This document shows positions 805 through 6,642 of a stretch of DNA of 34,538 bases, in pieces. Source of the stretch: Acidobacteriota bacterium (lineage in GTDB: Bacteria; Acidobacteriota; Terriglobia; Bryobacterales; Bryobacteraceae); contig VFZY01000046.1 in assembly GCA_016870915.1 (NCBI GenBank), positions 1-34,538 on the forward strand, read 5' to 3'. A program made the position numbers and the translations under genes. A model generated the notes under the pieces. It saw only the letters and a list, made by a program, of their open reading frames with translations. It was not told where the DNA came from and ran no database searches. How positions within the stretch are numbered: the first letter of the stretch is position 1; every line of letters starts with the position of its first letter.

Positions 805-840
805 TAGGGCGCTGTCTCTTCTTATGAGGAGTGGCGCCTA
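805..840. terminator. Possible bidirectional hairpin between convergent genes
   Basis: TAGG at 805-808 can pair with CCTA at 837-840 and CGC with GCG just inside, with one bulged G, giving an imperfect stem across the 44-base gap between the receptor fragment and the DUF1552 gene. The right arm overlaps the DUF1552 stop codon. There is no strong T-run, so this is a weak call based on position and partial symmetry. Confidence 0.3.
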
Positions 841-2196
841 CGCCAATCCCTGCAAGACTCCGGTGCTGTCCCCGAAGGACTCTTCCTTGACGCCCATGCG
901 ATGCAGCATTGCCAGATGCAGATTGCACAGCGGAGTCTTCTCCGCCGCACGCACGCGCCGCCCGGGCCGCAGCGTTCCGCGCCCGCCTCCGGCCAGCACC
1001 ACCGGCAGATTCTCGGGATCATGCCGGTTCCCGCACTTCAGTGAGCACCCGAACAGGATCATCGAGTTGTCCAGCAGCGATGTTTCGCCCTCTTTCAACT
1101 CCTTCAGCCGGGTGAGGAACTTGGCCACCTCGGCCATGTTCCAATCGATGATCGCCTCGTATTGGCGCCGCTGCTCCTCGATATCCCGGTGATGGGACAG
1201 GCCGTGCCAGCTCCCCTTCACTCCCGGCAAGAATGAATAGTCCTGCGAACTCTGCGCATCCCCGATCATCATCGTTGCAATCCGCGTGCTGTCGGTCCAC
1301 AACGCAAGCGTCAGGATGTCGTACATCAGCCGCAGATGCTCCGGATGAGTCGCCGGAATCCCGGGATTCGGCCGGTCCATTGGGAACTTGCCTTCGTTGA
1401 TCCACCGCTTCTGCGGGCGCATCGAAAGCTCAATCCGGTGCTCGACCGCACGCACGGAATCGAAATACTCGTCCAGCCGGGCCTGATCGGCGCGGCTCCC
1501 CTTCGCCCGCAGGGATTTCGCCTGCTCCCGCACTAGGTCCAGCACGCTGGTGTCGTCGCGCTGCATCGATTCGATCAACGACGGATTCTTCGGATCCGCG
1601 CCCGAAATCACGCGCGCCTTGTTGTTCCGGAACAGCCGGTCAAACGCCAACTGCGGCACAATCTCCTTCGGCACCGGAGTATGCCGGCTCGACCAGGAGA
1701 GAAAAGACCCCAGCGCCCTGGGAAACCCGCCGCCCGCCGTATCGATGCCTGTGCGGGGCGGATCCAGCCCAAGCTCAAGCGAAGGGAGCGGCGTCTCATG
1801 GCCCACCGCCCGCGCAGCCATCTGATCCACCGTGGTGCCGCCCGAATCCAGGTCGCCGTCCGTTGTCCGCTCCACGTACCCGCCAGACAGCCATGCCGGC
1901 ACCTTGGGCCAATGCCCGTTCCGCCCCACTGAGTTCTTGTTCCACAAGTTTTCGATCAGCAGGAAATCGTTCTTGAGATGCGCCAGCGGCCGCAGATGCG
2001 GAGTGATCTCATAGGACTCGCCATCGCCCGCCGGCGTCCAGTGATCGGGCCGCACGCCGTTCGGCATGAACATGGCCACCATGCGCAACGGCGGCGCGGT
2101 CAGCCGCTCCGCGCGGCCAACCGATTCCAGCCAGGGCAGCGCCATTGTAGCCCCTGCTCCGCGCAGGAATACGCGCCGGGACAATGTGGTCTTCAT
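838..2196 (-). CDS. DUF1552 domain protein, Tat-exported
   Basis: A 452-residue protein of the DUF1552 family, whose biochemical role is unknown. The N-terminus has a twin-arginine signal (S-R-R-V-F-L-R-G, arginines 7 and 8, then an Ala/Gly-rich stretch), so it is probably exported folded. Family-like segments include FMPNGVRPDHW, NGHWPKVPAWLSGG, SWSSRHTPVP, RVISGADPKNPS and GSWHGLSHH. The ATG at 2196 is preferred over the TTG at 2202 because AGGA (reverse of 2203-2206) sits six bases upstream. It follows the DUF1592 gene on the same strand after 30 bases. DUF1592 and DUF1552 genes are typically paired, so the two very likely form one operon and may form one complex (inference). Confidence 0.88.
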   Translation of the reverse strand: MKTTLSRRVFLRGAGATMALPWLESVGRAERLTAPPLRMVAMFMPNGVRPDHWTPAGDGESYEITPHLRPLAHLKNDFLLIENLWNKNSVGRNGHWPKVPAWLSGGYVERTTDGDLDSGGTTVDQMAARAVGHETPLPSLELGLDPPRTGIDTAGGGFPRALGSFLSWSSRHTPVPKEIVPQLAFDRLFRNNKARVISGADPKNPSLIESMQRDDTSVLDLVREQAKSLRAKGSRADQARLDEYFDSVRAVEHRIELSMRPQKRWINEGKFPMDRPNPGIPATHPEHLRLMYDILTLALWTDSTRIATMMIGDAQSSQDYSFLPGVKGSWHGLSHHRDIEEQRRQYEAIIDWNMAEVAKFLTRLKELKEGETSLLDNSMILFGCSLKCGNRHDPENLPVVLAGGGRGTLRPGRRVRAAEKTPLCNLHLAMLHRMGVKEESFGDSTGVLQGLA

Positions 2197-2226
2197 GGTC
2201 AATCCTAAGGTATCACTTCCCGCCGG

Positions 2227-4515
2227 TCATTTCTCTCCCAGCAGCAGCCGCGTCGACCGCTTCGACCGTGGTCCCGAACTCGAAATCTCAACGCCGCCCT
2301 GCGCGGCCCGGAACGGCAGGCTCAACACCACTTCGCGCACCAGCGTACGGGCGCGGTAGCCATCCCGCTCCACCGCCGCCGCCAGCTTCTGCACCGTGCA
2401 GTGATCTCCGTCCTGAACCGGCCGTCCGGTGGCGTAGCCCAACACCTTCCCCGCGAGGTGCCGCACGAAATCGCTCTTTCGCCGCAGCAGGACCTCGCGC
2501 AGCTCAACCGGCCCGTCGAACTTCTCCCCGGAAGGCAGGACGCCGGCCGCATCCACGGGCTTCTCCTGGAACCGGCCCATCCAGTCGAACGGTTCGAGCC
2601 CAAACCCAATCGGATCCATCAGGTTGTGACAGGTGGAGCACGCAGGGTCCGCACGGTGGCGCGCCAGAATCTGCTTCATCGTGAGTCCCTTCTCGGATTT
2701 TGACGCTTTCTCCAACGGCGGCACATCCGGGGGCGGCGCCGGCACCGGCGTGCCGAGCAGTGTATCCAGCACCCACGCCCCGCGCAACACCGGACTGCTC
2801 ATCCGGTAGTGCGACGTCAGGGCCAGCACGCCCGCCATGCCCAGGACGCCGGCGCGCCGGTTGTCCGGCCATGCCACGCGCTCAAAACGGTCACCCAGGG
2901 CAGGGAACTTGTCCTCCACCTGGTAATAGCGCGCCAGCCGCGCTGTCAGAAAGGAGTAATTACCGCCAATAAGGTCCAGCAGACTGCCGTTCGAAGAGAG
3001 TAAGTGATGAAACAGCATCACCGGCTCCTGGCGAAGCTCCACCGAAACCTCCGGTGTGTAGAAATGCTGCAACTCCGTCAGCAATGGCACAGCCCGGCCG
3101 CCCACATCCTGCGTGCCCAGCCACTGGCCCGTGAACGCCGTGGCGAACTGCCGCGACCGGGGGTCGTCCAGCATCCGGTCCACCTGCCCGGCCAGCACTC
3201 TGTCATCCTGAAGCCGGCCCGCCGCCGCCAGACGCAGCAGTTCGTCATCCGGCGCGGTTGCCCACAGGAAGTACGATAGCCGCGACGCCATCTCATACTG
3301 TCCAAGCTGCCGGATCTCCCGCCCCGCCGGCACATCCTCCACGCGGAACAGGAACCGCGGCGAGACCAACACAGCCTTCAACGCCAGCTTCACGCTCTCC
3401 TCATACGGATCGCCGCGCCGGCTCGCCCGCTCATACAGCGCCAGGAACGGCTCCACATCCGCCGCCGCAACCGGCCGCCGGTACGCCCGCTCGACAAACC
3501 GCTCCATCACCCGCCGCGCCGCCACGCGCCCATCCACGGGAGCCTCGCCCGGCTCCAGACCGAACAGCCTCTGGTGCAGCACAGCTTTGTCCGGCGACGC
3601 CGCGGCCGGCCGCTGCTCAACCGTCAGACTGTAGAACACCACGGGTTCCTCACCGGTCACCACGGCCACCTTGTGCACGCCGCGCTCAAGCGTCACGGTC
3701 TGAATCCGCGTCGTCGCGCCGCCATTCAGATCCCGCTGATAGTTCAGGGACCCCACCGCCCCGCCATCCACCTTCACATGCATCTGGAACGGAGTCTGCC
3801 GCGGCCTTTCCACGTTCACCCGCAGGTTGTACTGCCCTTCATTGAAAACGGTGACCTCGGTTGAAACCTCCTGCCCCGGCGCCAGATCCCGCCCGGGCTT
3901 GGTGCTCGGCGCCGCGGGAGCCATGCCAGCCGATGGGAATACACGATTGAGCGGCGGCGTCACAATCACCCGGTCCAGAATCTTCCCCGCCGCCTCCATG
4001 TACCGCTCCACCATCATCGGTGGAATGTACAGCGTATCCGCGTTCGTGTCGAACCCCGCGCCGCCGGTCTCATCGGCCGGGAAGACATCGGCCACCGCCA
4101 AGTCCACGCCCAGTAGATCCCGCACCGTGTTCCGGTACTCGCGCCGGTTCAGCCGCCGCGGTGGCGCCGCGCCGGCCCACGGCCCGGCCGAACAGGCGGT
4201 CTCCCGAAGCCGGTTGTCGATCCAGGAAGTGACCGCCAGCCGGTCCTCTTCGCTCAACTTCGAAGCAGCCGGCGGCATCGTCCGGTTCCGCAACTGCACC
4301 GCCGCACTGGCCCACTGCCCTCGCCGGTCCTGGATCTCATCCACGGTCTTCGAAGCCAGAAAGTTCACCCGCTTGCTGGTCCCCTGAGGGTTGTGGCACC
4401 CGGCGCAATTCTGCTCCAAAACCGGCCTGATCCGCCCGGAAAACTCCGCCGCGGCATCGGCGGCAATCAATCGCACCGGAGCAACAAGGGCAACAACAAT
4501 CGACAAGAACCGCAC
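2227..4515 (-). CDS. Cytochrome-like DUF1587/DUF1592/DUF1588/DUF1585 protein
   Basis: A roughly 762-residue exported multidomain protein of the type paired with DUF1552 proteins. After a hydrophobic signal (FLSIVVALVAPV) comes a cytochrome c-like motif CAGCH near residue 37. DUF1587 follows (RRLNRREYRNTVRDLLGV), then a central carbohydrate-binding-like region, DUF1592 (MASRLSYFLWATAPDDELL), DUF1588 (ALTSHYRMSSPVLRG), a second heme-type motif CSTCH near 626 followed by NLMDPIGFGLEPFD, and C-terminal DUF1585. Function is unknown in the literature I know. The CxxCH motifs suggest heme binding and redox work outside the cytoplasm. The start is uncertain: GTG at 4515 gives the cleanest signal peptide, while GTG at 4530 and TTG at 4551 are in frame. 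The gene begins only 38 bases after the PEP-CTERM stop. Confidence 0.88.
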   Translation of the reverse strand: MRFLSIVVALVAPVRLIAADAAAEFSGRIRPVLEQNCAGCHNPQGTSKRVNFLASKTVDEIQDRRGQWASAAVQLRNRTMPPAASKLSEEDRLAVTSWIDNRLRETACSAGPWAGAAPPRRLNRREYRNTVRDLLGVDLAVADVFPADETGGAGFDTNADTLYIPPMMVERYMEAAGKILDRVIVTPPLNRVFPSAGMAPAAPSTKPGRDLAPGQEVSTEVTVFNEGQYNLRVNVERPRQTPFQMHVKVDGGAVGSLNYQRDLNGGATTRIQTVTLERGVHKVAVVTGEEPVVFYSLTVEQRPAAASPDKAVLHQRLFGLEPGEAPVDGRVAARRVMERFVERAYRRPVAAADVEPFLALYERASRRGDPYEESVKLALKAVLVSPRFLFRVEDVPAGREIRQLGQYEMASRLSYFLWATAPDDELLRLAAAGRLQDDRVLAGQVDRMLDDPRSRQFATAFTGQWLGTQDVGGRAVPLLTELQHFYTPEVSVELRQEPVMLFHHLLSSNGSLLDLIGGNYSFLTARLARYYQVEDKFPALGDRFERVAWPDNRRAGVLGMAGVLALTSHYRMSSPVLRGAWVLDTLLGTPVPAPPPDVPPLEKASKSEKGLTMKQILARHRADPACSTCHNLMDPIGFGLEPFDWMGRFQEKPVDAAGVLPSGEKFDGPVELREVLLRRKSDFVRHLAGKVLGYATGRPVQDGDHCTVQKLAAAVERDGYRARTLVREVVLSLPFRAAQGGVEISSSGPRSKRSTRLLLGEK

Positions 4516-4553
4516 GCTAGCACTGTACACGCCCTGCGTTCCGATGCGCAAGC

Positions 4554-5507
4554 CTAAGCCCGGCGGCGAAGCCGGACCATTCCGAAGACAAACGCTCCGG
4601 CGGTGAGCATCCCAAACGTGGCGGGTTCGGGAACATCCGCGCCCGGGACGGCGCGCGTGTAGTCGTACCCGGACTCAGACCTGAAAGTCGCGTCCAAGAG
4701 ATTCATGCTGGCGTCGAGCAGGCGGAAGCCGCCCAAGTGGCTGCTGTTGAAGTAGTTCGCCGAGGCCGACGTCGACGGCTCACGGGTTCTCAGCATGTAG
4801 GGCGTGATGGATGCACGCAGATAGGAGGCTATTTGGAAAGTGGGAAGGCTGTGGCCCGAAAGGTGGTAGATCGACGACAGAGGTATCGTCACCGTCATGG
4901 CGATTTTCGCGCCGGCCGGCCGAAGGTCAGAGGTCAAGCCCGCTTTCCCTTCGCATTCCAGGAAGCCTCAATCCCAGTCTGCACACGTATAGAACGTATA
5001 AACCTCGGTGTCTAATTGTCTGCTTCCAAAGATAGTGGAAGAACTTATCACCCAGTTTCCATAGTTGGTGATGGTGCCGCTTCCTTCAACCAGGACGTCT
5101 GCCTGTAAAAAGGCAGCGTCTACAGGCGCGTCGTAACTGAGCAGATCAACATAACTTGAGAGAACATAACTTCCATTCATCGTCGGATTCTCGCCGGTAT
5201 AGTCCCCGCTCAGCGAGAAACCGATCTCGGCTCCCAGATTGGCGATTGCGGCCCGTCCGCGAGCGTAGCGCTCGGATACGATCGCGTGTTGCCCCAATCC
5301 TGTTCCCGTCCCTGAAACAGACTCCATCGCGAGCAGCGTGTCACCCGCCATGGCAGAGTATCGGGTCTCGTTGACCTCCATGTGCGGAAGGATCTGCCCG
5401 CGGGGGCCTCTCACCGGACCAGCACTCATAATGACCTGCAAGGTCGCCGCCTGTGACGCCAATACGCCGCCCACGAGCAACGCCAGAAACCTGGATAAAG
5501 TACGCAT
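4554..5507 (-). pseudogene. PEP-CTERM exported protein split by an in-frame TGA
   Basis: Two open frames, 5507-4968 and 4937-4554, lie in the same reading frame and are separated only by a TGA at 4970-4968. The first half starts with a signal peptide (MRTLSRFLALLVGGVLASQA) but has no C-terminal anchor. The second half has no signal peptide and ends in a classic PEP-CTERM sorting tail: VPEPAT, a hydrophobic helix (FGMLTAGAFVFGMV), then RLRRRA. Joined, they give about 317 codons with the expected order signal-domain-PEP motif-helix-Arg cluster. Reading through the stop gives CADWD*GFLECEGK with no frame change. PEP-CTERM proteins are exported and processed by exosortase; no exosortase is in the window. 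The middle domain is not recognised. As written, the anchor is lost. A sequencing error or strain-level mutation is possible. Confidence 0.75.
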
Positions 5508-5564
5508 TGGTAAAAGTTAGCACGACCTGTGCTCTCAGCGCAACAATGCCCCCGGCCGAACCGT

Positions 5565-5791
5565 CTACCGAACGGTAAGGAAGTGGTCTGGATCAATTCC
5601 CGCCTGTCTGAGATTGACCGCAACGTGCCCTCGGGCAGATCTCCGGTGTGATTCGGAAGCGTTGTGTAACGATTACTCGCCGGGTTAAACCAGATCTCAT
5701 GACTCCCGGCCCCCTGCCGGTCGAACACGAATCCCAGGGCCCTGAGTCTACGCGCAATCTCCCGGTACCGGAAACCAGAAAGCCGGCCCAT
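5565..5791 (-). pseudogene. hicA: HicA-type toxin with a one-base frameshift near its C-terminus
   Basis: HicA toxins are small mRNA interferases with a dsRBD-like fold and a catalytic histidine. Here the ATG at 5791 gives MGRLSGFRYREIARRLRALG, then RQGAGSHEIWFNP (catalytic His in GSH) and TTLPNHTGDLPEGTLRSI, a clear HicA. After that Ile (5612-5614) the frame goes wrong. One frame over, the sequence reads RQAGIDPDHFLTVR and stops at 5565, exactly a HicA tail. Restoring one base (ATCTCAGA to ATCCTCAGA) would give a normal 75-residue toxin. As written, the frame runs on to 5426 with an unrelated tail, overlapping the start of the PEP-CTERM gene. It starts one base after the hicB stop (TGAAATG), so the pair is translationally coupled. 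The toxin is probably inactive unless this is a base-calling error. Confidence 0.8.
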
Positions 5792-5792
5792 T

Positions 5793-6023
5793 TCAGGCAG
5801 CGACGACGATCGTGTAATCCCGATGGTCCGCCGTGGTCGAGAGGTTAGGCAGAGTATCGCGTTCTCGTCTTGCCTCAATAATCCGGCGTGCAACGTCACG
5901 GGCAATCTCGAGTGTTTCGGCGACGGTCCGTCCCTGAGCGACCAAACCCGGCAACTCGTAGGACGTAGCGAGATAGACCCCCTCAGGCAAGTGCTCCACC
6001 TGGATTCGGATCACGAGTTCCAT
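5793..6023 (-). CDS. hicB: HicB-type antitoxin
   Basis: A 76-residue protein of the short HicB-like antitoxin family, which binds and neutralises HicA. It begins MELVIRIQVEHLPEGVYLAT, continues YELPGLVAQGRTVAETLEIARDVARRIIEARRERD, and lacks the longer C-terminal DNA-binding domain seen in some HicB proteins. The ATG at 6023 is chosen over the in-frame start at 6092 because family members begin here, GGGA precedes it, and the longer form would overlap the divergent gene at 6082. The antitoxin gene comes first and overlaps the toxin's translation signals. The antitoxin frame is intact although the toxin next to it is damaged. Confidence 0.82.
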   Translation of the reverse strand: MELVIRIQVEHLPEGVYLATSYELPGLVAQGRTVAETLEIARDVARRIIEARRERDTLPNLSTTADHRDYTIVVAA

Positions 6024-6081
6024 ACGTCCCGATGCTAGCACCTTGCTCAGCAACCCCGCCCCTGCCACAATGAGGGCAGGC

Positions 6082-6642
6082 ATGTTGGTCACCGCCTACG
6101 ACGCACACGTGGAACAACTCTTCGATCGGGTCCGTCAACTGCACGCCATCTTGACAGCCCACGGCATCCCATACCGCATCGTCGGAGGCGTTGCCGTCTA
6201 CCTCCACGTCTCTGCCGTCGACCCTCTCAGTGCACGCATGACCAAAGATGTCGACGCCGCCATCCACCGGCGCGATCTCGACCGCGTCATTGCCGCCGCA
6301 GCCGAAGCCGGATGGACCTACCGCCACGCTGCCGGCGTTGACATGCTCATCGGTCAACCCGAATCCAAGGCCCGCTCCGCCGTCCACCTCATCTTCCTGA
6401 ACGAGCGCGTCCGCCCCGATCACCTGGAACCCGTCCCCGCCTCCGCCCCCGTCGCCACGCCCGAAGGATTCCTCCTAGCGCCCCTCCCGGACCTCATCCG
6501 CATGAAGCTCACCAGCTTCCGCCTCAAAGACCAAGTCCACATCCAGGACCTCGACGCCGCCGGCCTCATCACACCACCCATCGAAGCCGCCCTCCCGCCA
6601 CTCCTCCGCCAACGCCTCGCTCAAGTCCGGACCACCGAGTAG
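6082..6642 (+). CDS. Nucleotidyltransferase-fold protein (AbiEii/MNT-like)
   Basis: A 186-residue protein with the polymerase-beta-like nucleotidyltransferase signature. RIVGGVAVYLH (Gly35-Gly36) is followed by MTKDVDAAI, giving Asp56-x-Asp58, the expected metal-binding pair. After it come an HLIFLNERV strand and an LIRMKLTSFRLKDQVHIQDL helix typical of the domain's end. Similar proteins are annotated as AbiEii toxins or as plain nucleotidyltransferases; no partner antitoxin is adjacent, so the toxin reading is unproven. ATG 6082 is preferred because GAGGG sits five bases upstream; ATGs at 6070 and an earlier start at 6043 are in frame. It is divergent from hicB (58 bases apart) and ends 23 bases before the DUF1549 gene, so it may be co-transcribed with it. 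Confidence 0.75.
   Translation: MLVTAYDAHVEQLFDRVRQLHAILTAHGIPYRIVGGVAVYLHVSAVDPLSARMTKDVDAAIHRRDLDRVIAAAAEAGWTYRHAAGVDMLIGQPESKARSAVHLIFLNERVRPDHLEPVPASAPVATPEGFLLAPLPDLIRMKLTSFRLKDQVHIQDLDAAGLITPPIEAALPPLLRQRLAQVRTTE

What the first reader, a model, noticed from the sequence alone, without database searches (positions are those of the whole stretch)
4554..5507. PEP-CTERM gene split by a single in-frame TGA
The N-terminal half has the signal peptide and the C-terminal half the PEP-CTERM tail. They are in the same frame with only one TGA (4970-4968) between them. Each half alone is incomplete, so the gene was one piece. Either a fresh nonsense mutation released a secreted form without its sorting tail, or the base call is wrong, or the stop is read through.
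Basis: seen in the sequence. Interest (0 to 1): 0.6.

Follow-up and report, generated by a model that had tools for sequence, protein, structure and literature searches.

The report
Surface-protein gene broken by one stop
A bacterium's gene for an exported, sorted surface protein is interrupted by a single stop codon; the two halves look like one gene, and the likeliest reason is an ordinary loss-of-function mutation, although a sequencing error cannot be excluded.

Summary
On the minus strand a 179-codon frame with a secretory N-terminus (5507-4968) ends at TGA 4970-4968. The same frame then runs open for 137 codons to a PEP-CTERM tail (TAG 4556-4554). Codon usage favours the same frame on both sides of the stop. 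A profile built without the window gene matches both halves in order. The protein's only two cysteines lie five residues either side of the stop. All 14 homologues found that span the region are uninterrupted.

Best explanation: a PEP-CTERM cargo gene broken by a nonsense mutation. No close orthologue was found, so the lost residue cannot be named. By eye, 9 of 63 PEP-CTERM genes in this draft genome are split or remnants, while none of 62 ABC-transporter domain hits has a stop inside. The exosortase is intact. The neighbouring hicA also shows a frame change, so a sequence error remains the main rival. Short PEP-CTERM frames are not clearly commoner here than in relatives.

Selenocysteine readthrough is formally possible, because tRNA-Sec, SelA and SelB are present. 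It has no positive support: a SECIS-like hairpin is no rarer at ordinary codons, and the homologues do not settle it. Low interest.

The parts
4968..5507 (-). N-terminal part of the broken gene: secretory N-terminus plus the conserved N-terminal block; 179 codons
   Evidence: matches leave-out family profile at model 78-193
4968..4970 (-). in-frame TGA stop, in the variable linker between the two conserved blocks
4554..4967 (-). C-terminal part, 137 codons in the same frame, ending TAG
   Evidence: matches family profile at model 233-309, 41.0 bits
4563..4637 (-). PEP-CTERM sorting tail (VPEPATFG..., hydrophobic stretch, RLRRRA)
   Evidence: PF07589; TIGR02595
4983..4985 (-). Cys175 codon, five residues before the stop
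4953..4955 (-). Cys185 codon, five residues after the stop; only other Cys of the protein
2227..4551 (-). downstream gene on the same strand: cytochrome-like protein with DUF1587/1592/1588/1585/1595 domains in one frame
838..2202 (-). DUF1552 (HXXSHH) protein in one frame, same strand

Best explanation
The gene encodes an exported PEP-CTERM cargo protein with a secretory signal, an N-terminal block, a variable linker with a cysteine pair, a C-terminal block and a sorting tail. A single nonsense mutation, fixed or segregating in the sequenced population, made a TGA in the linker. Translation ends there. The 179-residue product would be exported but lacks the C-terminal block, the partner cysteine and the tail that exosortase handles, so it is most likely misfolded, degraded or lost. 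This is decay of one of many apparently dispensable surface proteins, not a programmed event. Shown: frame, family membership, position of the stop, uninterrupted homologues, intact exosortase in the genome. Inferred: loss of function, recency, and that the base is real.
For: Same frame and codon usage on both sides of the stop. The leave-out profile matches both halves in order. 14 of 14 spanning homologues outside this genome are uninterrupted, and the window copy is the only one of 18 matches with a stop inside. The only two cysteines straddle the stop (about 0.1% by a crude random placing), and 5 of 16 homologues, two of them near-duplicates, have two or three cysteines in the linker, one at the same spacing of ten. 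TGA ends 7 of 12 long genes in the window, so it is an ordinary stop here. Other PEP-CTERM genes of this genome look broken by eye: in L084, L119 and L090 the secretory start and the tail lie in different frames, L107 shows several frame changes, and L075, L098, L117 and L127 are tail remnants beside other genes. With the window that is 9 of 63, while 0 of 62 ABC_tran hits (51 of them full-length) has a stop inside. Exosortase is intact (229.6 bits, 355-aa frame).
Against: One lesion and no other decay in 137 codons also fits a sequence error; absence of a further stop only bounds neutral divergence below about 0.27 per site. The 9 of 63 were called by eye and after seeing the data (p = 0.004 against 0 of 51 full-length ABC domains; with only the five frame or stop lesions p = 0.06). 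Counting full-length ABC domains favours unbroken ones, and they are shorter and more constrained. Relatives do not show this genome to be special: of the 150 rows that one search listed, 6 of 40 own and 11 of 110 other PEP-CTERM frames have 137 aa or fewer (p = 0.39). The 11 are in drafts of 250 or more contigs, and there are 0 in 41 rows from the three listed genomes with 20-40 contigs, which hints at contig ends or assembly. The N-half match is weak (13.9 bits), and the homologues were found with a profile that held the read-through window protein, although the test profile left it out.
Confidence: 0.77

Rival explanations
1. The stop is an error of the assembly or base calling, and the real gene is intact.
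For: The genome is a draft in 367 contigs. Only one codon stands between an open frame of 317 codons and the split. The neighbouring hicA also shows a frame change at about 5612, so two lesions lie within about 650 bases. Short PEP-CTERM frames in relatives were listed only in fragmented drafts.
Against: In 26 window ORFs scanned with Pfam no other gene was seen with its domain cut at a frame change inside the window. 0 of 62 ABC_tran hits has a stop inside. The visible lesions of this genome are mostly inside contigs and in PEP-CTERM genes.
Confidence: 0.15
2. The truncated 179-residue form is made, exported and useful as a secreted variant without the sorting tail.
For: Signal and N-terminal block are intact.
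Against: The stop removes the C-terminal conserved block as well as the tail and leaves an unpaired cysteine; none of the 14 spanning homologues has this form.
Confidence: 0.04
3. The TGA is read as selenocysteine, giving a sorted surface protein with a Cys-x4-Sec-x4-Cys loop.
For: The genome has tRNA-Sec, SelA (389 bits) and SelB (SelB-wing_3, 70 bits). A hairpin whose six-base loop starts with G, at the 29th base after the stop, passes a loose SECIS filter. The stop sits between two cysteines, and one homologue, L062, has three cysteines in the linker.
Against: The same filter passes at 928 of 2504 sampled codons of 12 other genes and 98 of 301 codons of this gene. Folding is no better than shuffles (z 0.71, 0.66, -0.31, -0.44), and Rfam gives one irrelevant weak hit. 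The column is not conserved: 15 of 16 homologues have a gap, one has N, none has Cys. Sec occurs in oxidoreductase active sites (abstract of PMC1794560 in the listing), and no redox family was found here.
Confidence: 0.04

Closest known systems
PEP-CTERM/exosortase cargo proteins (PF07589, TIGR02595; Haft et al. 2006, PMC1569441, passages seen)
   Same: Secretory N-terminus, C-terminal PEP motif with hydrophobic stretch and basic end, many copies per genome, exosortase encoded in the same genome
   Different: The tail is cut off from the rest by an in-frame TGA
Bacterial pseudogenes made by a nonsense mutation (general knowledge)
   Same: Single premature stop, the remainder still in frame, uninterrupted homologues elsewhere
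   Different: No principled difference seen; several other PEP-CTERM genes of the same genome also look broken
Bacterial selenoproteins
   Same: In-frame TGA in a genome with tRNA-Sec, SelA and SelB
   Different: No supported SECIS, no Cys in the matching column of 16 homologues (15 gaps, one N), no redox family hit

Membership tests
PEP-CTERM cargo protein | C-terminal PEP motif, hydrophobic helix, basic tail above the curated cut-off | tested here: met
   PF07589 21.9 bits against 20.7; TIGR02595 20.8 against 16
PEP-CTERM cargo protein | N-terminal signal peptide in the same product as the tail | tested here: not met
   The signal is in frame (by eye) but a TGA lies between it and the tail; so it is a broken member
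PEP-CTERM cargo protein | Exosortase in the genome | tested here: met
   PF09721 229.6 bits, 355-aa frame, no stop
Pseudogene by nonsense mutation | Homologues uninterrupted across the stop | tested here: met
   14 of 14 spanning homologues found
Pseudogene by nonsense mutation | The stop is present in the organism's DNA | not testable with these tools
   No reads, no second assembly of the species; the genus holds one genome
Selenoprotein | Sec machinery in the genome | tested here: met
   tRNA-Sec (Rfam 70.7 bits and ARAGORN; the Rfam model also rings weakly in all 14 controls), SelA, SelB
Selenoprotein | SECIS element downstream of the UGA | tested here: inconclusive
   The loose filter passes, but so do 928 of 2504 ordinary codons; z-scores 0.71, 0.66, -0.31, -0.44; no Rfam SECIS
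Selenoprotein | Cys or Sec at the same place in homologues | tested here: inconclusive
   15 of 16 homologues have a gap in the column, one has N; L062 has three linker cysteines elsewhere

The most novel reading that the evidence does not exclude
The TGA is decoded as selenocysteine, giving an exosortase-sorted surface selenoprotein with a Cys-Sec-Cys loop.
Probability: 0.04. Interest if true: 0.75.

Novelty: new member of a known kind. Interest (0 to 1): 0.15.

Why it matters
By itself it is a routine broken gene. It is one data point that PEP-CTERM cargo genes may turn over quickly even where the exosortase is kept, and it warns against annotating the two halves as separate genes or the N part as a tail-less secreted protein.

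Tried and rejected
Close orthologues to name the lost residue: the N part has no match at E 0.001 in 101 genomes other than its own, and the genus holds one genome. The C part alone has 6 weak matches in 5 other genomes (30-49% identity). In 237 family genomes, own included, the other 15 matches of the read-through query are weak (E 0.004-0.1). Genome contigs gave two loci that match only the tail region.

Structure prediction of the read-through protein alone was useless (mean pLDDT 31.5), so no fold search was made. The second structure job was not used.

Phase variation by homopolymer slippage as a cause of the broken PEP-CTERM genes: no run of five or more equal bases in the stretches searched for L084, L119, L090 and L107.

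Loss of exosortase as the cause of decay: rejected, exosortase is intact.

Genome-wide recoding of TGA: rejected, 7 of 12 long window genes end in TGA.

Independent translation of the C part from the TTG at 4937: it would have no signal peptide; not pursued.

Base rate in relatives: only 150 rows were listed; recounted from that list (own 6 of 40, others 11 of 110 with frames of 137 aa or fewer), it does not set this genome apart. One search compared against a badly chosen stretch and says nothing. The Fisher counts (n = 62) were replaced by n = 63.

Paper searches: PEP-CTERM + nonsense mutation gave 0, and PEP-CTERM + exosortase + Acidobacteria gave 0. PEP-CTERM + pseudogene gave 11, listing only. 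PEP-CTERM + exosortase + sorting signal gave 6, of which I saw passages of PMC1569441. Selenocysteine + UGA + SECIS + Acidobacteria gave 3, of which I saw passages of PMC1794560. I make no claim that this is not in print.

Mended after re-checking: confidence lowered from 0.80 to 0.77, with sequence error raised to 0.15 and selenocysteine to 0.04, because of the base-rate recount and because 15 of 16 homologues have a gap at the stop.

Full report
What is there. On the minus strand an ATG at 5507 opens a 179-codon frame that ends at TGA 4970-4968. The same frame continues without a stop for 137 codons to TAG 4556-4554. The N part begins with a typical secretory sequence (read by eye). The C part ends with a PEP-CTERM tail above the Pfam and NCBIfam cut-offs. 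The window is contig 46 of a 6.6 Mb, 367-contig draft genome with 63 PEP-CTERM hits and an intact exosortase. The taxon (Acidobacteriota, Bryobacterales-like) is my inference: two loci with similar tails come from records titled Acidobacteria, and the rest is recalled.

One gene, not two. In 120-base windows the codon score is best in the same frame before and after the stop, and GC3 agrees, though both halves score below all 12 reference genes. A single-sequence search finds no close orthologue. A five-sequence profile finds 17 other matches in 14 other genomes among 237 searched (E up to 1e-5, at most 11 candidates scored per genome). Four of the 17 were in the profile itself. 14 of the 17 span the region of the stop, and none has a stop inside. 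The other three match only the C-terminal block; one of these, L065, lies near a contig start and its upstream part does not resemble the family, so it is unclear whether it is whole. A new profile built from 16 homologues without the window gene matches the N part at model 78-193 (13.9 bits against at most 7.8 in 200 shuffles) and the C part at 233-309 (41.0 bits against at most 6.7); the read-through scores 50.7. The gap between the two blocks is a linker of variable length, where the TGA lies. The protein has exactly two cysteines, residues 175 and 185, on either side of the stop. Of 16 homologues, L060, L061 and the near-duplicates L067/L070 have two cysteines in the linker (L060 at the same spacing of ten), L062 has three, L069 one and ten none. 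A disulphide is inferred.

Why it is split. TGA is the terminator of 7 of 12 long genes in the window. The genome does encode tRNA-Sec, SelA and SelB, so I tested selenocysteine. The RNA after the stop folds no better than shuffles, and Rfam reports one irrelevant weak hit. A SECIS-like hairpin by loose criteria (recalled, from no call) is present, but it also passes at 928 of 2504 sampled codons of 12 other genes and 98 of 301 codons of this gene. In the stop's column 15 of 16 homologues have a gap and one has N, so the homologues neither support nor firmly exclude Sec. It is possible but unsupported.

Decay or error. I looked at the frames upstream of the PEP-CTERM tails: 61 of the 63 hits, the other two. 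Only 14 were read in all three frames, so the count is a rough minimum. In L084, L119 and L090 a secretory start lies in one frame and the tail in another, with a switch of codon score between them. L107 shows several switches. L075, L098, L117 and L127 are tail remnants abutting other genes. With the window gene that is 9 of 63; L081 and L071 are unclear and not counted. As a control, none of 62 ABC_tran hits has a stop inside; 51 are full-length, and the 11 weak or partial ones lie in open frames of 210-1250 aa. This control sees only the domain, and counting full-length ones favours unbroken genes. 9 of 63 against 0 of 51 gives p = 0.004, 5 of 63 gives p = 0.06, by eye and post hoc. Relatives weaken the point: in the 150 rows listed, frames of 137 aa or fewer are 6 of 40 here and 11 of 110 elsewhere (p = 0.39), and elsewhere they occur only in drafts of 250 or more contigs. 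So decay of PEP-CTERM genes may be general, or partly an assembly effect.

Neighbours. In 26 window ORFs scanned with Pfam I saw no other gene with its domain cut at a frame change inside the window; one hit at 5-793 is partial at the contig start, and five or more ORFs had no significant family. The exception is hicA just upstream, whose match stops at model position 52 of 58, while a stretch that resembles a HicA end (my judgement, no search) lies in another frame from 5612. Two lesions next to each other in accessory genes fit relaxed selection, but a bad patch of assembly would look the same.

Verdict. Most likely an ordinary nonsense-mutated PEP-CTERM cargo gene, with sequence error as the main rival. 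The proposed secreted variant has no support, because the stop removes a conserved block and not only the tail.

Noticed in passing
window 5426-5905 (-), frame change near 5612: HicA-type toxin gene whose family match stops at 52 of 58 model positions; a stretch that looks like a HicA end followed by a stop lies in another frame at 5612-5565. The 99-aa ORF upstream (5793-6092) sits where a HicB antitoxin would be, but no family hit reaches its cut-off.
   Followed up: partly
L084 (C40), L119 (C191), L090 (C67), L107 (C54): Other PEP-CTERM genes of the same genome that look split by frame changes, without homopolymer runs of five or more in the stretches searched.
   Followed up: partly
L075 (C15), L098 (C116), L117 (C312), L127 (C60): PEP-CTERM tail remnants (41-112 aa frames) directly beside or fused to unrelated genes.
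   Followed up: partly
own genome G000, 63 PEP-CTERM hits: 18 of 63 PEP-CTERM hits lie within 1500 bases of a contig end, against 17% expected (p = 0.013): assembly may tend to break near these genes.
   Followed up: no
L020 (C119), L028 (C111), L134 (C27): Selenocysteine machinery (tRNA-Sec, SelA, SelB) in this genome; its true selenoproteins were not identified.
   Followed up: no
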